This document shows, in pieces, positions 243 through 10,819 of a DNA stretch of 64,000 nucleotides. Location: positions 1,240,001-1,304,000 of the forward strand of contig NZ_AP019632.1 of the NCBI RefSeq assembly GCF_007035645.1, written 5' to 3'. This DNA comes from Enterobacter asburiae. Its GTDB lineage: Bacteria; Pseudomonadota; Gammaproteobacteria; Enterobacterales; Enterobacteriaceae. The notes beneath the pieces are model-generated. The model was not told the origin of the DNA and did no database searches. It was given only the letters and a program-made list of their open reading frames with translations. The position numbers and the translations under genes are program-made. Every line of letters begins with the position of its first letter. Position 1 is the first letter of the stretch.

Positions 243-734
243 ATGGCAATTCCTGTTTATCTTTGGCTGAAGGACGACGGCGGCGCGGACATCAAAGGGT
301 CTGTTGACGTTCAGGATCGTGAAGGCAGCATCGAAGTGGTTGCACAGGAGCATAACCTGTACATCCCGACCGACAACAATACCGGCAAGCTGACCGGCAC
401 CCGCATCCACACGCCGTTCCTGTTCACGAAGGAAATCGATTCCTCCAGCCCGTACCTGTACAAGGCGGTGACCACGGGTCAGACCCTAAAATCCGCTGAG
501 TTCAAGTGGTACAAAATCAACGACGCGGGCCAGGAAGTGGAGTACTTCAACACCAAACTGGAAAACGTGAAGGTAGTGAAAGTGAATCCTGAAATGTATG
601 ACATCAAGGATCCTTCTAAAGAGAAGCACAACCACCTTGAACGCGTTGAACTGCGTTACGAAAAAATCACCTGGACCTACAAAGACGGCAACATCATTCA
701 TTCCGACTCCTGGAACGAACGCGCCACCGCGTAA
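243..734 (+). CDS. hcp: T6SS inner-tube protein Hcp (TssD)
   Basis: 163 aa, the normal length for Hcp. It begins MAIPVYLWL, followed by the KGSVDV segment and a C-terminal block (ERVELRYEKITWTY) typical of enterobacterial Hcp. Hcp hexamers stack into the tube propelled by the contractile sheath, with VgrG and PAAR at the tip, and can carry small effectors in the lumen. ATG at 243 is 5 bases after the upstream OmpA-domain gene. A strong intrinsic terminator directly follows the stop codon, suggesting that hcp is expressed at a higher level than the downstream genes. Confidence 0.95.
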   Translation: MAIPVYLWLKDDGGADIKGSVDVQDREGSIEVVAQEHNLYIPTDNNTGKLTGTRIHTPFLFTKEIDSSSPYLYKAVTTGQTLKSAEFKWYKINDAGQEVEYFNTKLENVKVVKVNPEMYDIKDPSKEKHNHLERVELRYEKITWTYKDGNIIHSDSWNERATA

Positions 735-769: not shown

Positions 770-905
770 GCTGAGTGCCTGTACGTAACGGGCTTTCAGC
801 AAAGAAAACCACAAACTGCCAGCCTGACCATATGCGCTTTGGTCCCCTTCACGGGAAACAGCGAGGGGCGGTAGCGTGTCCAGGAACCGACAAAGAGAGA
901 ATCTC

Positions 906-3539
906 ATGGAAAATCCAGCCATCCTGTTACGTCGTCTGAACCCTTACTGTGCCCGTGCGATGGAAGGCGCGGCGTCGCTCTGCCAGACCCGCGCCCATGC
1001 GGAAATTTTGCCGGAGCACTGGCTGCTAAAACTGCTGGAGCAGGGGGAAGGTGACCTGACGGTGTTGGCGCGTCGCTATGAATGGGATATGGATGGCATC
1101 TGGCAGGATTTGCTTGGCTGGCTCGACAGACAACCTCGCTCCGTGCGCCATCGCCCCCAGCTGTCTGATGCCATTCAGACGCTGATGCAGGAAGCCTGGA
1201 TGATTGCCTCCCTTAATAGCGAAGAGCACATTCGCAGCGTCCATCTGCTGATGGCCCTGGTGGAAAAACCAAAACTGGCACGTTGTGACGGCCTTTGGCC
1301 GTTGTTAACGCTTGCTCAAAGCCAGCTGGAGCGCCTGCGGCCTTTGTTGGATGCGCAATCGGATGAACGTCTGGAAATGCAGCGCGAAGCTGAACTGGCG
1401 CAGAACCACGGTGGTGAGATGGAATTTGTCGGGCGTCCGGCTGGTGTGGAAATGAAAGAGGGGGAACTGAGCCCTGCACTGCAGAACTCGCTGGATAAAT
1501 TCACCCTCGATGTCACTGCCAAAGCGAAGGAAGGGAAGATCGATCCTGTGTTTGGCCGCGATACAGAAATCCGCCAGATGGTGGACATCCTTTCCCGCCG
1601 CCGTAAAAACAACCCGATCCTGGTCGGCGAGCCGGGCGTGGGGAAAACTGCACTGGTTGAAGGTCTGGCGTTGCGTATAGCCGAGGGTAATGTGCCGGAA
1701 TCCCTCAAAACGGTTACCCTGCGCACCCTTGACCTGGGTCTGCTGCAGGCTGGCGCGGGCGTGAAAGGTGAGTTCGAACAGCGTCTGAAAAACGTCATCG
1801 ACGCGGTGCAGCAATCGCATGTACCTGTTCTGCTTTTTATTGATGAAGCGCATACCATCATTGGCGCAGGTAATCAGGCGGGTGGTGCAGATGCGGCCAA
1901 CCTGCTGAAACCGGCGCTGGCGCGTGGCGAACTGCGTACTATTGCGGCCACCACCTGGTCTGAATACAAACAATACTTCGAGCGTGACGCCGCCCTGGAA
2001 CGTCGTTTCCAGATGGTAAAAGTGGATGAGCCTGACGATGACACTGCCTGCCTGATGCTCCGTGGCCTGAAATCCCGCTATGCCGAACACCACAATGTGC
2101 ATATCACCGACGATGCGGTTCGTGCGGCAGTTACTCTTTCACGTCGTTATCTGACCGGGCGTCAGCTTCCTGATAAAGCGGTCGATCTGCTGGACACCGC
2201 TGCCGCTCGCGTGCGTATGAGCCTCGACACCGTACCTGAACAGCTAATCCGCCTTCGCGCGAGTATCGCTGCGCTCGACATGGAGAAGCAGGCGTTACTG
2301 GAAGATATCGCCATTGGCAATCAGTGTCATGCCGAGCGTTTGAGCGAGATTGAGCAGGAAGAGGTGCGCCAGATAGTGACACTCGACGAACTGGAAACCC
2401 AGTACGGTCAGGAGATGAAACTCACCGAGCAGATACGCGAAAGCCGTCAGGATATATCACGCCAGCGTGAGACTCACAGGCTGCAACAGGAGCTTAACGA
2501 GATGCAGCGCAGCAACCCGTTGCTCTCCATGGATGTGGATGTCCGCACCGTTGCCAACGTGATTGCCGACTGGACAGGCGTGCCGTTGTCATCGCTGATG
2601 AAGGACGAGCAGACCGAACTGCTGACTCTGGAAAATGAAATCGGTAAACGTGTGGTTGGGCAGGATGTGGCGCTTGAGGCTATCGCCCGACGTCTGCGTG
2701 CGGCAAAAACGGGTCTCACCTCCGAGAATGGCCCACAGGGCGTATTCCTGCTGGTGGGACCGAGCGGGGTGGGGAAAACCGAAACCGCGCTTGCGCTGGC
2801 CGATGTCATGTACGGCGGTGAGAAGTCACTCATTACGATTAACCTCTCAGAATACCAGGAGCCGCATACGGTTTCCCAGCTGAAGGGCTCACCTCCGGGT
2901 TACGTCGGTTATGGCCAGGGAGGGATCCTGACCGAAGCCGTGCGCAAGCGCCCGTATAGTGTGGTTTTGCTCGATGAAGTCGAAAAAGCCCACCGCGACG
3001 TGATGAACCTGTTTTATCAGGTGTTTGATCGCGGCTTTATGCGTGATGGCGAAGGGCGTGAAATCGACTTCCGCAACACCGTTATTCTGATGACCTCCAA
3101 CCTCGGCAGCGACCACCTGATGCAGTTGCTCGACGAACAGCCGGAGGCCAGCGAAGGCGATCTCCACGAGCTGCTGCGTCCGATCCTGCGTGACCACTTC
3201 CAGCCCGCGTTGCTGGCCCGCTTCCAGACCGTCATTTACCGTCCGCTGGCGGAAGCGGCCATGCGTACCATCGTGGAAATGAAGCTGTTACAGGTTAGCA
3301 AGCGCCTGCATCGACACTACGGCCTGACCACGCACATTGATGAGAGCCTGTATGACGCCCTGACTGCCGCCTGCCTGCTGCCGGACACCGGCGCACGCAA
3401 CGTCGACAGCCTGCTGAACCAGCAAATCCTGCCGGCGCTGAGCCAGCAACTGCTCACGCACATGGCCGCGAAGCAGAAGCCACACAGCCTGACGCTGGGC
3501 TGGGATGACGAAGAAGGGATTGTGCTGGCGTTTGATTAA
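906..3539 (+). CDS. clpV: T6SS sheath-recycling AAA+ ATPase ClpV (TssH)
   Basis: 877 aa from the ATG at 906, which has AGAGAG about 7 bases upstream. An in-frame GTG at 876 would add 10 residues but has no good ribosome-binding site. The layout is that of ClpB/ClpV: an N-terminal Clp-N domain (about 1-160), a first AAA+ module with Walker A GEPGVGKT near residue 241 and Walker B LLFIDEAH near 308, a coiled-coil middle domain (about 395-540), and a second AAA+ module with GPSGVGKT near 618 and [11 protein letters not shown] near 685. ClpV unfolds contracted TssB/TssC sheath so that subunits can be reused. It is separated from hcp by a terminator and a 137-base gap, so it may have its own promoter. 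Confidence 0.95.
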
Positions 3540-3564: not shown

Positions 3565-4206
3565 ATGGACAGCGCAAAAGAGATTGCCAAAGATATGCTT
3601 GAGGCCATTCATATCGATGGGTCTGGGTTTATCGGTGCTGTGGCGAAAGGTGTTATTTCCTTACCCATTAGCCTTGCCTATCTTGGCTATGATTTTATAG
3701 ATACGGAACACCGCAGAGAGAATCAGGATGATAAATTTCGGTTAACAGCACTGGTTAAAAAAGTAACTTTTAACGATGAGGTTATTTATAAGGTTATTAA
3801 ACCATTTATAGATGATTTTGTTTCTCATGTAGACATGCATAAAATTTCACATTTTTCAAGAAATATATCTGGAAGTGTTATAGGTAAAATGATGTTCTCG
3901 CAGTTTACGGGGGTTAACCTCGGAAGGGCGATTATATCTCAAGGAGTTGGTGCCTTTTTTTCTGGTTCTGTTGCTGGTGGTGTATTGGGAGTTGGCGCTG
4001 AAGCATCAAGATCTATTTATACATCACGGTACTTGCGTGAAAGAAACCCCATAATGTATGAGAAATTAAACAGTATGGGTGATTTTGATCTTTTTTATTA
4101 TCTTGTTGAGGACATTGTTAGGCCTTATGAGACGGCTTGCGAAATTGCAAAGATAAATTCTGAAGAGTTTAATAATGTCTGCGAATACTTCTTTGGAGGT
4201 TTATGA
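3565..4206 (+). CDS. Unrecognised protein in T6SS cargo position; candidate membrane-acting effector
   Basis: 213 aa; I do not recognise a family with certainty. It has no signal peptide. There are two apolar stretches: GAVAKGVISLPISLAYLGYDF near residue 25 and a glycine-rich run (AIISQGVGAFFSGSVAGGVLG) near 124-144 that resembles a glycine-zipper membrane segment. Base composition is much more AT-rich than clpV or the tss genes. It lies between clpV and vgrG, a usual cargo site, and overlaps the next small membrane-protein gene by 4 bases (ATGA). I infer a T6SS effector with its immunity gene; size and features are reminiscent of small ion-pore effectors such as Serratia Ssp6, but homology is not shown here. 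An accessory protein is an alternative. Confidence 0.6.
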   Translation: MDSAKEIAKDMLEAIHIDGSGFIGAVAKGVISLPISLAYLGYDFIDTEHRRENQDDKFRLTALVKKVTFNDEVIYKVIKPFIDDFVSHVDMHKISHFSRNISGSVIGKMMFSQFTGVNLGRAIISQGVGAFFSGSVAGGVLGVGAEASRSIYTSRYLRERNPIMYEKLNSMGDFDLFYYLVEDIVRPYETACEIAKINSEEFNNVCEYFFGGL

Positions 4207-4430
4207 ATATAAAAGATTTTATACTTATCATTGTTTCACGGATCGTAGCCAGTATCGGGATGACACTAGGAACTATCAGTATGATTTACTCTTTCTACTG
4301 TTTCTTTTTTTCAGCCAATCCTTACCGCTTTATTCTAGGTGGGGCAAGTATAGTAGCCTTTCTCATAGGTTATGGACTTTATAAATTCGCCTTGAAATAC
4401 ATTTATGATGAATGGGAACATTATAGATAG
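4203..4430 (+). CDS. Small two-helix membrane protein; candidate immunity protein for the preceding gene
   Basis: 75 aa, starting at the ATG of an ATGA overlap with the preceding stop, with GGAGG five bases upstream at 4195-4199, so translation is probably coupled. Two hydrophobic segments are visible: about residues 6-33 (ILIIVSRIVASIGMTLG onwards) and about 40-62 (FILGGASIVAFLIGYGLY), with a short charged tail. It has no signal-peptide cleavage site. A small inner-membrane protein coupled to a putative membrane-active effector is the expected form of an immunity protein against a pore-former; this function is inferred from position and topology only. It is AT-rich like its partner. Confidence 0.6.
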   Translation: MNIKDFILIIVSRIVASIGMTLGTISMIYSFYCFFFSANPYRFILGGASIVAFLIGYGLYKFALKYIYDEWEHYR

Positions 4431-7018: not shown

Positions 7019-8956
7019 ATGACTACCGCTGTATCCTCACTCTGCCGTAAAAACCCCCATGCTCCATGTGACGAGCAAATGCCCTACTGGGTAGAATTTC
7101 AGTTGGTTGATGAGCAGGGCGAACCTGTGGCGAATATGCCATGGACTGCTGAAAGTTCACACCCTGTTTCCGGGCCGGTGGAGGGATTCACTTATTCTGG
7201 TCAGAGCGATGCTGACGGGCTAATCAGCATTGATATGCCACATGGTCTTGAGCTGAAACTGACACTTGACAGTAACCAACTGACAGAGGAAATGGAAAAG
7301 CGCTCTCTTCGCGTGGGTAGAGATCCTCTAAAAGACTCAATTGTTCGTCCAAAAGCAGAGAAAAATGGCTATGTGTGGCACTACGCCGTTGTGGGCGAAT
7401 TATGCCATGAGCAACCTGATTTACAATTAAGAGACGGGGAAGAGTTACCCTTATTTCATTTTCCAATCAGTAGTTCATTTAAGGGCGTTAAGGTCAGAAC
7501 AAATGAACTTGAAAAGCGCCATGTGATAGAAATTTGTCCGTTCAGAGCCTGGGAGCTAGTGCTCCATCACCAGAATGATTACTCTATGGCCAATGCCATC
7601 AATTTAGGGTTGGCCTCTGATTTAGCATATGATGATATAGATATCATTACGAAGTATTTTATTAATAAATGTCAGGACCTGTCGACGATACCATCCAGAA
7701 AGATTGGTCAATCGACTATTAATGCTTTAGTTGTTGATGTGCCGTATTCTGATAGGTATTTTCTTCCAATAGATATTGATTCGACCAAAGCTGATGATCC
7801 TGAAGGAGATACGCAGCTTTATTATGTCTACAACAACAATAAAATAGTCATAGCATGGCGTGGGACTGCCAGTCTGACTGATGGGATAACGGATGCTTCT
7901 TTCAGACCAGTAGCGCCCGATAGTTGCAATATCAAATCGGAATGTACTTCATTAGTTCCTGTTGGGAAGGTGCATACTGGTTTTTGGGCAGGCTATACCT
8001 TAATAGAACGAAAATTTGAAAAGGAACTTACTGAACTAACGAGAATAATACCGGGTAAAGAGTTATTCATTTGTGGGCATAGCTTAGGAGGAGCGCTGGC
8101 ATTAATTCATTCTGCTAGGTTAAAAAATAGGAACCCACTTCTTTACACATACGGTATGCCAAGGACGTTCACTAAAAATGCTGTAGATGCATTATCAAGT
8201 ATTATCCACTATCGGCATGTAAATGATCAAGACCCAGTACCATCAGTTCCACCTGAAGCTGATCTGGATAATCAGTTATATAAACTATGGGGGCCATTGG
8301 GAACAACGCTTGGTTTTTTATGGTCGGTCGTTGAGCTTACCGCCTGGCAAGTCGTAGAGTGGGGGGGCTGCTTTTGGCACCATGGGAATACGGTCGCATT
8401 TTTAACCACAACTCAAAGTAGAAAGTGGCAACAATGTAGTATTGAACTTCCTTACCCAAGAAATTGCATGACCATTCAGGCGAGGCTTCCTGAAAAGGTT
8501 AAACTTTATCTTGTTCCTTCGCTGGCGCTTCAGGAAGCCAGGCAATCAGGGCAAGATCAAAAGGCATTTAAAGCTTCACTTACTAAGGAAGAACTTCAAG
8601 AATTTTTCCCCGAAGGCATGAATCCAAATAGAGGGATGCCTGCGAATGTTGGAAATCATCTTCTGACATCATATATACCCTATATAAATAATAAATTGTT
8701 AGGGTTAGCTTATGAAAAAGGGCTAAGCGATGGAAAGATCTTCACTGAGCATGCCGATAAAGTAGCATCTTTTAATTTACAAATGGACCACTATTCAGGT
8801 GAAATCCCTAAGAATGAGTTTGACAGGAATAAAAAGTTTCTTTCGCTCGAGGATTTGCTAAAAAATTCGCTTAGCTCAACCATCTCTGCCGCATCCGGTT
8901 CCGATGCTCTTAAAAGATTTGGCCATTATGGTGAAGAGGACATAGAAAATGTATAA
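7019..8956 (+). CDS. tle: T6SS lipase/phospholipase effector (class-3 lipase fold)
   Basis: 645 aa. The ATG at 7019 has AGGAGGG about 9 bases upstream; a longer reading from 6992 lies inside vgrG. Residues about 22-95 form a beta-rich N-terminal domain (YWVEFQLVDEQGEPV, YSGQSDADGLISI). The central region is a class-3 lipase: the nucleophile elbow CGHSLGG puts Ser at residue 355, candidate Asp lies in HVNDQDPVP (403/405), and His in WHHGN (454/455). It would hydrolyse phospholipids of target-cell membranes. Position after vgrG and before two lipoprotein genes matches the Enterobacter cloacae Tle/Tli arrangement. The 5' end is GC-rich while the rest is AT-rich, suggesting a swapped toxin domain. 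It overlaps the first tli gene by 8 bases. Confidence 0.88.
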   Translation: MTTAVSSLCRKNPHAPCDEQMPYWVEFQLVDEQGEPVANMPWTAESSHPVSGPVEGFTYSGQSDADGLISIDMPHGLELKLTLDSNQLTEEMEKRSLRVGRDPLKDSIVRPKAEKNGYVWHYAVVGELCHEQPDLQLRDGEELPLFHFPISSSFKGVKVRTNELEKRHVIEICPFRAWELVLHHQNDYSMANAINLGLASDLAYDDIDIITKYFINKCQDLSTIPSRKIGQSTINALVVDVPYSDRYFLPIDIDSTKADDPEGDTQLYYVYNNNKIVIAWRGTASLTDGITDASFRPVAPDSCNIKSECTSLVPVGKVHTGFWAGYTLIERKFEKELTELTRIIPGKELFICGHSLGGALALIHSARLKNRNPLLYTYGMPRTFTKNAVDALSSIIHYRHVNDQDPVPSVPPEADLDNQLYKLWGPLGTTLGFLWSVVELTAWQVVEWGGCFWHHGNTVAFLTTTQSRKWQQCSIELPYPRNCMTIQARLPEKVKLYLVPSLALQEARQSGQDQKAFKASLTKEELQEFFPEGMNPNRGMPANVGNHLLTSYIPYINNKLLGLAYEKGLSDGKIFTEHADKVASFNLQMDHYSGEIPKNEFDRNKKFLSLEDLLKNSLSSTISAASGSDALKRFGHYGEEDIENV

Positions 8957-9716
8957 GAGATTAAATTCATTCGTCTTGTTCCAGTTTGCTTTATTGCTAA
9001 ATGGATGCGCTCAAGCAACTGACAGAACATTATCACCACCACTAAATACTGGCTGGGTTAGTATTGAGATTAAAAATCCTTCTGCGTATACAAAGCCTTT
9101 TCCTCTTGAAGTGTTGTATGTATCAACAACGTGCAAGCGTGAGTTGATGAGTATGCGAGATGGTCAACATTATGAGAAAGTGGGACTCAATCCAATAAAA
9201 ATACCGCTTCAGGAAAAGGACTCATCCGGTGTATGGATTGCAAAAATAGCAAAAGATGGCGGCGGTAAGTGTAACTGGAAACTGAGTGAATTCAATTTGG
9301 GTATTGAATATATTGATGCTACTCACCTCGGGAAGGGGTTAGTTCCGGGAACTGCAGTTGGTGCAACAATTGCGTTTGATGACAATGCAACAAAAAATGG
9401 TCGATTTAAGGTGTTTACAGGTTCCGAGCTTGTTTTATCTCCCATGTACTACCCTTTGATAGATAGTAATAAAGATATAAGTGTGAATGATACGTTGAAT
9501 TTATTTGGTCAGGATGATTTTTTACTGAAAAAGATAGTATCTTCAGAAAAAAATGTTCAAATTAAATTCGAACCGACAATTGATGAGTCTAAAGTCGTCA
9601 GGATGATTGCTCCAACAGAACAAAAAGTTGGGGTAAACTATAAAATTATCTACCCTGATGGCACGGTTGTGTCTGATGGATCAACTCACCCTGATGTAAA
9701 CAGGTTGAAGGATTAA
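8949..9716 (+). CDS. tli: Lipoprotein immunity protein against the lipase effector, copy 1
   Basis: 255 aa. Signal peptide MYKRLNSFVLFQFALLLNGC ends in a lipobox (LNGC), giving a lipidated Cys20; the next residues are AQ, compatible with outer-membrane sorting. The mature part has conserved cysteines (TTCKRE, KCNWK) and ends in YPDGTVVSDGSTHPDV. Overlap of 8 bases with the lipase gene points to coupled translation. Lipoproteins in this position neutralise periplasmic lipase effectors delivered by sister cells. Assignment as Tli rests on lipobox, size and position; binding to the lipase is inferred. AT-rich. Highly similar to the next gene, especially in the first two thirds. Confidence 0.82.
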   Translation: MYKRLNSFVLFQFALLLNGCAQATDRTLSPPLNTGWVSIEIKNPSAYTKPFPLEVLYVSTTCKRELMSMRDGQHYEKVGLNPIKIPLQEKDSSGVWIAKIAKDGGGKCNWKLSEFNLGIEYIDATHLGKGLVPGTAVGATIAFDDNATKNGRFKVFTGSELVLSPMYYPLIDSNKDISVNDTLNLFGQDDFLLKKIVSSEKNVQIKFEPTIDESKVVRMIAPTEQKVGVNYKIIYPDGTVVSDGSTHPDVNRLKD

Positions 9717-9782
9717 TCTCAGCAGCATCCGGTTCTGATGCTATTAAAAGATTTGGTCATTATGGTGAAGAGGACATGGAAA
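9717..9782 (+). pseudogene. Duplicated remnant of the 3' end of the lipase effector gene
   Basis: Between the two tli genes the DNA still reads in frame as SAASGSDAIKRFGHYGEED followed by MENV and a stop, almost identical to the last residues of the lipase (ISAASGSDALKRFGHYGEED then IENV). The remnant overlaps the start of tli copy 2 exactly as the true lipase end overlaps copy 1. The duplicated unit is 834 bases (distance between the two tli starts) and therefore included about 65 bases of the lipase 3' end plus the whole tli. It has no start codon suited to expression of a product. Confidence 0.85.
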
Positions 9783-10550
9783 ATGTATAAGAGATTAAAT
9801 TCATTCGTCTTGCTCCAGTTTGTTTTATTGCTAAATGGATGCGCTCAGGCAACTGACAGAACATTGTCACCACCATCGAATACTGATTGGGTTAATATTG
9901 AAATAAAAAACCCGTCTTCGTATACAAAGCCTTTTCCTCTTGAAGTGTTATACGTATCAACGACGTGCAAGCGTGAGTTGATGAGTATGCGAGATGGAAA
10001 GCATTATGAGAAGGTAGGGCTTAATCCAATAAAAATACCTCTTCAGGAAAAGAACTCATCCGATGTATGGATTGCAAAAATAGCTAAAGATGGCGGCGGT
10101 AAGTGTAACTGGAAACTGAGTGAGTTCAATTTCGGTATTGAATATACTGATGCTACTCATCTCGGGAATGGTTTAGTACCGGGAACTGCTGTTGATGCAA
10201 CAATCGCGTTTGATGACAATGCAACAAAAAATGGCCTATTTAAGGTGATTCAAGATTCTGAGCTCGTTTTATCACCTGCGTATTACCCCTTGATACAAAG
10301 TAATAAGCGCATCAGCACAAATGATATGTTGAATTTATTTGGTGAGAAAGACTTTATGCAAATAAAGATGATTTCCTCTGCCAAAAGCATTCAGATAAAA
10401 TTCATGCCAACTCTTGATGAATCTAAGTTGGTTAAAATGATTGCACCAAAAGAGCATAAAGTCGGAGAGTTTTACAAAATTGTCTACCCTGATGGCTCAG
10501 TTGTATCTGATGGATCAACTCACCCTGACGTAAGCAGACTGAAGGATTAA
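9783..10550 (+). CDS. tli: Lipoprotein immunity protein against the lipase effector, copy 2
   Basis: 255 aa from the ATG at 9783, homologous to the start of copy 1; an upstream in-frame ATG at 9738 lies in the lipase remnant and would mask the signal peptide. Same lipobox (LNGC, Cys20). By eye about 18 differences from copy 1 in the first 170 residues but about 25 in the last 85, so the C-terminal part has diverged faster. It may neutralise a different lipase variant or simply add dosage. Cysteines and the terminal YPDG-VVSDGSTHPDV region are kept, so the gene looks functional. It is followed two bases later by paar. Confidence 0.82.
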   Translation: MYKRLNSFVLLQFVLLLNGCAQATDRTLSPPSNTDWVNIEIKNPSSYTKPFPLEVLYVSTTCKRELMSMRDGKHYEKVGLNPIKIPLQEKNSSDVWIAKIAKDGGGKCNWKLSEFNFGIEYTDATHLGNGLVPGTAVDATIAFDDNATKNGLFKVIQDSELVLSPAYYPLIQSNKRISTNDMLNLFGEKDFMQIKMISSAKSIQIKFMPTLDESKLVKMIAPKEHKVGEFYKIVYPDGSVVSDGSTHPDVSRLKD

Positions 10551-10552
10551 AC

Positions 10553-10819
10553 ATGACAAAAGGCTTAGTTTTGCTTGGTGACAAAACCTCTCACGGCGGA
10601 AAAGTGATCTCCGCCTCTTCCAATATTACTGTCGACGGAAAAAAAGCCGCATTAGTTGGTGATATGGTTAGTTGCCCGGTAGAAGGGCATGGAACTAATC
10701 CTATCGTGGAAGGATCACCGCACCGGACATTTAACGATCGCGCTGTTGTCGTCGATGGCTGCAAATGTCAGTGCGGTTGTACTGTAATTTCAAGTGCTCA
10801 GAACAGCACAGTAGGATAA
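10553..10819 (+). CDS. paar: PAAR-repeat spike-tip protein
   Basis: 88 aa. Standalone PAAR protein: LLGDKTSHGGKVISAS, DGKKAALVGDMVSCP, EGHGTNPIVEGSP and the histidine and cysteine residues expected to bind the tip zinc (His14, Cys, His pairs). PAAR caps the VgrG trimer and sharpens the spike; short PAARs without extensions carry no toxin themselves. It starts 2 bases after tli copy 2 and ends 3 bases before the next gene, so it belongs to the same transcript as vgrG and the lipase module. Confidence 0.92.
   Translation: MTKGLVLLGDKTSHGGKVISASSNITVDGKKAALVGDMVSCPVEGHGTNPIVEGSPHRTFNDRAVVVDGCKCQCGCTVISSAQNSTVG

What the first reader, a model, noticed from the sequence alone, without database searches (positions are those of the whole stretch)
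8949..10550. Tandem tli duplication that retained the tail of the lipase gene as a fossil
The 66 bases between the two immunity genes still encode the last residues of the lipase in frame. This fixes the mechanism: an 834-base unit spanning the end of tle and all of tli was duplicated. The two copies differ little in the first two thirds (about 10 percent by eye) but strongly in the last third (about 30 percent), suggesting partial gene conversion or selection for a new binding specificity.
Basis: seen in the sequence. Interest (0 to 1): 0.72.

Follow-up and report, generated by a model that had tools for sequence, protein, structure and literature searches.

The report
Two immunity alleles joined in tandem
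Two neighbouring antidote genes against a bacterial lipase weapon look like a simple gene duplication, but relatives indicate that they are two long-separated versions of the same gene joined together, with the tail end of a lost toxin gene left between them.

Summary
Between tli1 (8949-9716) and tli2 (9783-10550), 66 bases still encode the end of a tle lipase in frame. Repeat spacing is 834 without indels; divergence is 8.8% over the first 465 nt of tli and 25.7% over the rest.

The inference "this fixes the mechanism: duplication" does not hold. Relatives show two tli allele classes that differ in the last third: alpha (tli1; E. asburiae plasmid, Erwinia) and beta (tli2; Cedecea, Hafnia, Tenebrionibacter). 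Both occur elsewhere directly behind a complete tle. Sisterhood of tli1 and tli2 is rejected for the last third (p-AU 3e-5), for the fossil tail (0.003) and weakly for the first part (0.03). dN/dS is alike in both parts (0.13, 0.14) while dS rises from 0.32 to 1.37: older ancestry, not new selection. In the first part tli1 and tli2 are no more alike than tli1 and genes of other genera, so gene conversion between them is not needed.

Best reading: an illegitimate join of two allelic tle-tli modules, the "effector displaced, immunity retained" process described in Vibrio, here in a class-3-lipase locus. A Leclercia genome shares the junction. The fossil still carries a Shine-Dalgarno sequence for tli2.

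The parts
7019..8956 (+). tle: T6SS class-3 lipase effector gene (ORF listed from TTG 6992; likely start ATG 7019)
   Evidence: Pfam Lipase_3 PF01764 E 1.3e-23; GHSLGG motif; lies between vgrG and PAAR genes; start
8003..8059 (+). tle codons 338-356 (numbered from TTG 6992): variable patch, types A and B, just before the strand that leads to Ser364 of GHSLGG
   Evidence: alignment of 10 tle; tle window 331-360 correlates with the tli last third over 9 arrays (r 0.42; 0.76 if Leclercia's second tli is used; other tle windows correlate too); helix 343-352 then strand 357-363 in the model
8949..9716 (+). tli1: immunity lipoprotein gene, alpha allele
   Evidence: 95% aa to the E. asburiae plasmid gene behind a 95% identical tle; alpha clade 100/100 in the last third
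9414..9713 (+). tli1 last third (codons 156-255), alpha class; C-terminal beta strands
9716..9790 (+). fossil: last 24 codons and stop of a tle, closest to Leclercia and Cedecea tle ends
   Evidence: the first base belongs to the stop of tli1
9770..9774 (+). GAGGA, likely Shine-Dalgarno sequence of tli2, inside the fossil, 8 nt before the ATG
   Evidence: same block and spacing as before tli1
9783..10550 (+). tli2: immunity lipoprotein gene, beta class in its last third
   Evidence: in the beta clade with L111, L054, L055 second copy, L056, L057 (100/100); intact, dN/dS 0.08 and 0.12 against Leclercia's second copy
10248..10547 (+). tli2 last third (codons 156-255), beta class
10543..10552 (+). 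AGGATTAAAC: end of tli2 that is also the leader of the PAAR gene; second junction, where several related arrays hold a third tli (gamma) or its remnant
   Evidence: the same leader stands before PAAR in L111 and in E. coli PapRG-06-5
10553..10819 (+). PAAR tip protein gene
   Evidence: PF05488 E 3e-24

Best explanation
tle encodes a type VI secreted class-3 lipase, and tli1 and tli2 encode lipoproteins that block such lipases. tli1 and tli2 are two old alleles of one immunity locus, alpha and beta, not a recently duplicated gene. A module tle-tli(alpha) and a module tle-tli(beta) were joined by an illegitimate crossover between the stop codon of tli(alpha) and the last 24 codons of the other module's tle. 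That tle was lost except for its tail, while its tli was kept. Shown: the two allele classes, the junction, its presence in a second genome, the rejection of sisterhood (strong for the last third, weaker for tail and first part). Inferred: that it was a join rather than an old duplication with later replacement; which module was resident and which came in; that tli1 is the cognate of the present tle; that tli2 protects against beta-type neighbours; that the tail was kept because it holds tli2's ribosome-binding site; the functions themselves.
For: Trees and AU tests: tli1+tli2 rejected for the last third (p 3.4e-5) and the first part (p 0.033) (13 genes), and for the 67-nt tail (p 0.00325; 11 tails). 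Allele-fixed sites: tli1 alpha 25 of 25, tli2 beta 18 of 25. Both classes occur directly behind a complete tle elsewhere: alpha in L003, L060, L062; beta in L054, L056, L057. Fossil tail: at 4 of its 6 differences from the own tle tail it agrees with both the Cedecea live tail and the Leclercia fossil, against the own tail, L003 and L062; at a fifth it agrees with Leclercia's live tail and fossil, L056 and L060; one is its own. Nearest live tail by DNA is Leclercia's (93%, own 88%). The same junction stands in Leclercia sp. 29361, again with alpha before and beta behind. Elsewhere in the family displacement is plainer: in L068 and L072 the fossil tail resembles another tle type more than the live tle genes of the array (scores 127 against 60, 84 against 44), and in L111 a whole tle-tli plus a PAAR start sits in front of an older tle tail. 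L059 keeps 19 contiguous nt at its second tli start identical to its live tle tail while the part upstream is decayed with indels.
Against: The junction alone cannot tell joining from duplication followed by allele replacement. The tail is only 67 nt and its clades are not strongly supported (60/0 for the two fossils, 81/87 for the group with the Cedecea and Leclercia live tails). By protein score the window's fossil is undecided between own tail (117) and Leclercia's (119). tli2 is a distinct beta branch (84% at best in the last third, to L111) and carries alpha at 6 of 25 sites. In the first part the rejection is weak. In L074 the fossil matches that array's own tle best (103 against 31 for one piece), so own-type remnants do occur. 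Leclercia's tle has the B patch while its first tli is alpha. Binding and protection cannot be tested here.
Confidence: 0.8

Rival explanations
1. In-situ tandem duplication of the window's own tle end and tli, then divergence by selection or partial gene conversion.
For: 834-nt unit without indels, junction of the expected form; in L074 the fossil is of the own tle type.
Against: tli1 is nearer to an E. asburiae gene (95% aa, in an array without tli2) than to tli2 (83%); AU rejections; dN/dS alike in both parts.
Confidence: 0.06
2. Ancient duplication made the junction in an ancestor with a Leclercia/Cedecea-like tle; later homologous recombination replaced tle-tli1 in front of it by an alpha module.
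For: The junction is shared with Leclercia, whose live tail is the nearest to the window's fossil by DNA; the locus is a mosaic of strongly varying identity.
Against: Needs an extra allele replacement in front of the junction; the junction was seen in 2 arrays only (window and Leclercia), both alpha-[tail]-beta, never with two like copies.
Confidence: 0.13
3. The fossil is kept because its coding sequence still acts (a translated peptide), not for its ribosome-binding site.
For: Reading frame still open; 3 differences between the two fossils (69 nt, 96%).
Against: By eye the only ATG in the fossil frame opens four codons and lies 1 nt behind GAGGA, too close to use it; in L059 the coding part is broken by indels while the block at the start is intact.
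Confidence: 0.04

Closest known systems
Immunity gene arrays by sequential effector displacement in Vibrio (Kirchberger et al. 2017, PMC5361080; passages read)
   Same: New effector-immunity module in front, older immunity genes kept behind, a partial effector gene between them in some strains; alleles of one strain do not cluster together; homology-facilitated illegitimate recombination proposed.
   Different: The worked examples there exchange different effector types; here two alleles of one tle/tli family are joined, with a 24-codon tail that still carries a likely ribosome-binding site of the immunity gene behind it. Other genus and effector.
P. aeruginosa Tli1a/Tli1b (PMC13133936; one passage read)
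   Same: Two tandem lipoprotein immunity genes of a Tle effector; the authors suggest a possible duplication.
   Different: DUF3304 proteins of a Tle1 effector; the Tli here match no Pfam family at E 0.001.
P. aeruginosa PldB immunity proteins PA5086, PA5087, PA5088 (only a reference title seen)
   Same: Several immunity genes for one phospholipase effector.
   Different: Other effector family (recalled); nothing read about remnants between the genes.
E. cloacae Tle/Tli, proposed Tle6 (Jensen et al. 2024, PMC11470151; abstract and passages read)
   Same: T6SS lipase with an alpha/beta-hydrolase fold and its own immunity protein.
   Different: Its Tli is all alpha-helical ankyrin; this Tli is all beta by prediction.
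V. cholerae TseL/TsiV1 (Tle2 type; recalled, not tested)
   Same: Lipase behind vgrG with a periplasmic immunity protein (recalled).
   Different: Kinship not tested here.

Membership tests
Displacement-made T6SS immunity array | Immunity genes of different alleles in tandem behind one effector | tested here: met
   alpha and beta clades
Displacement-made T6SS immunity array | Remnant of an older effector before the retained immunity gene | tested here: met
   fossil 9716-9790
Displacement-made T6SS immunity array | The remnant comes from another effector allele than the present one | tested here: inconclusive
   tail with own tail as a clade rejected, p-AU 0.003, but protein score undecided, 119 against 117, and only 67 nt
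Displacement-made T6SS immunity array | Immunity alleles of one strain do not cluster together | tested here: met
   p-AU 3.4e-5 and 0.033
Displacement-made T6SS immunity array | Retained immunity gene protects against the old effector | not testable with these tools
   needs co-expression or competition assays
T6SS class-3 lipase effector | Lipase_3 domain with GxSxG, next to vgrG and PAAR | tested here: met
   secretion and activity not tested
Tle6 (E. cloacae type) | Ankyrin-repeat immunity protein | tested here: not met
   no ankyrin family among the Pfam matches of 40 tli at E 1; all-beta model, mean pLDDT 88
Tle2 (TseL type) | Sequence kinship to TseL | not tested
   recalled likeness only; no sequence fetched
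Simple tandem duplication | The two copies are each other's closest relatives | tested here: not met

The most novel reading that the evidence does not exclude
The double immunity array works as a switch platform. A cell immune to both alpha and beta lipases can exchange the specificity patch of its tle by homologous recombination without killing itself or its kin. The window and Leclercia share the array junction but carry tle patches of opposite type (A and B), each with a tli of the matching class in the array.
Probability: 0.25. Interest if true: 0.62.

Novelty: new member of a known kind. Interest (0 to 1): 0.42.

Why it matters
A pair that looks like a textbook duplication appears to be two alleles side by side, so effector tails between immunity genes should be read as possible marks of joined modules and tested against relatives. 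The case gives a natural alpha/beta immunity pair that differs mainly in one part, and a candidate patch in the lipase, which makes specificity directly testable. It also suggests why such tails may survive: they hold the start signal of the gene behind them.

Tried and rejected
Fossil scan in the wrong frame: the tle-tail queries were cut in the wrong reading frame, and one search used them too. Their fossil rows are discarded; one search repeats the scan correctly (10 rows in 8 of 26 arrays at E 1e-2, 6 arrays at 1e-4; shuffled tails gave 2 places in 20 repeats at E 1e-2). A checkpoint note still names 11 of 26; that figure is void. The gene positions are not affected.

Selection for a new specificity as the cause of the divergent last third: not supported, dN/dS alike. 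Conversion between the two copies: no sign. Fold search of the Tli model in PDB: no match at E 0.001. Pfam and NCBIfam: no family for Tli at E 0.001. PDB sequence search for Tli: best E 0.97. An order-wide search gave 6 of 394 genomes, five of them seen before, and no close new relative. Genus searches around G351, G413, G260 and G344 added one useful array, L111.

Matching the tle patch to tli class (9 arrays, 42 tle windows): with the first tli of each array the patch (301-360) gives r 0.39, p 0.03, and other tle windows are as high or higher (376-420 r 0.49-0.52; 526-555 r 0.46). With Leclercia's second tli, a choice made after seeing the data, the patch gives r 0.73, p 0.004, and windows at 331-405 are highest (0.67-0.76). 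Suggestive only. L059 was left out because its first tli is of another type.

The two fossils as a clade: not shown (60/0 with junction letters left out; 88/78 with them).
Full report
What is there. The window holds part of a T6SS cluster: a tssH-like gene (876-3539, named by its place in the annotated E. asburiae plasmid), unknown ORFs, vgrG, tle, tli1, tli2, PAAR and further cluster genes. tle carries a Lipase_3 domain (E 1.3e-23). tli1 and tli2 (255 aa each) start with a signal-like stretch ending in LLLNGC, which reads as a lipobox (judged by eye). No Pfam or NCBIfam family fits them at E 0.001. A model of Tli1 built with 37 other sequences is nearly all beta (mean pLDDT 88.3) and has no solved neighbour at E 0.001.

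The fossil. Bases 9716-9790 read in the tle frame as 24 codons and a stop, 92% identical to the live tle end. Copies are in register at 834 nt. tli1 and tli2 differ at 41 of 465 and 78 of 303 sites on either side of the best split, which falls at residue 155, near the strands that make up the C-terminal part of the model.

Relatives. tli relatives were found in 7 of 61 genomes of the genus and 45 of 392 of the family, the window's own genome included in both, in 8 loci of the species collection and on 21 plasmid records, of which one, of E. asburiae, is above 90%. Thirteen genes of 255 codons, the window's two included, are 79% or more identical to tli1 in protein. In their last third they split: win_tli1, L003 (E. 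asburiae), L055 first copy (Leclercia), L060 (Erwinia) and L062 form one clade (100/100, "alpha"); win_tli2, L111, L054 (Cedecea), L055 second copy, L056 and L057 another (100/100, "beta"), with L058 and L059 between. At 25 sites fixed differently between four other alpha and four beta genes, tli1 is alpha at 25 and tli2 is beta at 18, alpha at 6 and other at 1; in the first 465 nt there is no such site. Both classes stand elsewhere directly behind a complete tle, and a third kind of tli ("gamma") or a remnant of it follows either class (L003, L062, L060 behind alpha; L055 behind its second, beta copy). In Cedecea (L054) the next gene is of yet another kind (45%). So alpha and beta look like alleles of one place, and the window and Leclercia hold both in tandem.

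Tests of duplication. If the window had duplicated its own gene, tli1 and tli2 should be sisters. This is rejected for the last third (p-AU 3.4e-5), weakly for the first part (0.033), for tail plus first part (0.015) and for the whole unit (1.3e-5), and for the 67-nt tail with the junction letters left out (0.003). The fossil differs from the own tle tail at 6 of 67 sites; at four of them it agrees with both the Cedecea tail and the Leclercia fossil and differs from the own tail, L003 and L062; at five it agrees with the Leclercia fossil; one is its own. dS between tli1 and tli2 is 0.32 in the first part and 1.37 in the last third, dN/dS 0.13 and 0.14: the last third has older ancestry, not special selection. 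The first part is not specially alike between the two copies (91%, against 93% to Cedecea and 94% to E. asburiae), so conversion between them is not called for. tli1 against E. asburiae shows the reverse pattern (dS 0.16 and 0.03), and identity along vgrG-tle-tli1 is patchy against the eight loci compared: the locus recombines often.

The junction in a second genome. Leclercia sp. 29361 (L055; its contig has the length of G055:C1, a genome of the window's genus group) has tle-tli(alpha)-[tail]-tli(beta)-tli(gamma)-PAAR with the same junction, GGATTAAT[C or A]TCAGCAGC. So the join is older than the split of these two arrays or has moved between them. Its tle carries another patch than the window's.

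Family-wide picture. I examined 26 arrays, those for which I had longer stretches; duplicate loci, L080 and the many genomes with weaker matches were not included. In-frame tle tails outside live tle genes occur in 8 of 26 at E 1e-2 and in 6 at 1e-4 (shuffled tails gave 2 places in 20 repeats). Against own and foreign live tails by protein score: clearly foreign in 2 (L068, L072), clearly own type in 1 (L074), undecided in 5, the window among them (119 against 117). L111 has a complete tle-tli, a PAAR start, then an older tle tail and older tli genes, which is what displacement predicts. L074 shows that own-type remnants exist too.

Why the tail may be kept. The tle end overlaps the tli start, and its GAAGAGGA is placed like a Shine-Dalgarno sequence for tli1; the same block with the same spacing stands before tli2 inside the fossil. 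In L059 the second tli has 19 contiguous nt, start codon included, identical to that array's live tle tail, while the tail upstream is decayed with indels (the likeness of the decayed part was reached by 13 of 2000 shuffles). This is inference, not proof; several downstream tli genes have no such tail (for example the gamma genes 7 nt behind a stop).

How it likely works. tli1 is taken to be the cognate of the present tle: tle 7618-8217 is 99% identical to that of E. asburiae and the last third of tli1 98%, higher than the parts around them. tli2 likely protects against beta-type lipases of neighbours or kin. A variable tle patch (codons 338-356) before the nucleophile strand is of type A in the window, L003, L058, L060 and of type B in L054, L055, L056, L057; L062 and L059 have other forms. 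Its distances correlate with those of the tli last third but not the first part (r 0.39, or 0.73 with Leclercia's second tli, chosen afterwards; 9 arrays); with the first tli only, other tle windows do as well. L058 has an A patch with a tli of mixed class, a result against a strict rule.

Known or new. The process, displacement of effectors with retained immunity genes and sometimes partial effectors between them, was described for Vibrio (PMC5361080, passages read). Seven searches of the paper library listed, among the rows shown, no title or abstract start on this tle/tli family or on such allele pairs; most listed papers were not opened, and most subscription journals are not held. I file it as a new member of a known kind, with the allele join and the tail that bears a start signal as its particular features.

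Noticed in passing
window 10543-10552: Second clean junction: tli2's last codons AAG GAT TAA also form the leader AGGATTAAAC of the PAAR gene. The same leader stands before PAAR in L111 and E. coli PapRG-06-5, so the gamma tli of related arrays may have been lost through this short shared sequence.
   Followed up: partly
window 3565-4430: Between the tssH-like gene and vgrG lies a 213-aa ORF without Pfam or NCBIfam match, with a glycine-rich hydrophobic stretch, followed by a small membrane-protein-like reading frame; in the E. asburiae plasmid this slot holds a DUF2778 gene and a hypothetical gene. Looks like a second effector-immunity slot.
   Followed up: no
   Followed up: partly
L055 1-2340: Upstream in the same Leclercia locus lies another tle of a different type, matched in separate pieces as if broken, with its own tli and tli remnants.
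   Followed up: no
L068 11115-11225: Pluralibacter gergoviae: the fossil tail is of the window's tle type (score 127) while the two live tle ends there score 60, a plain case of a displaced toxin.
   Followed up: yes
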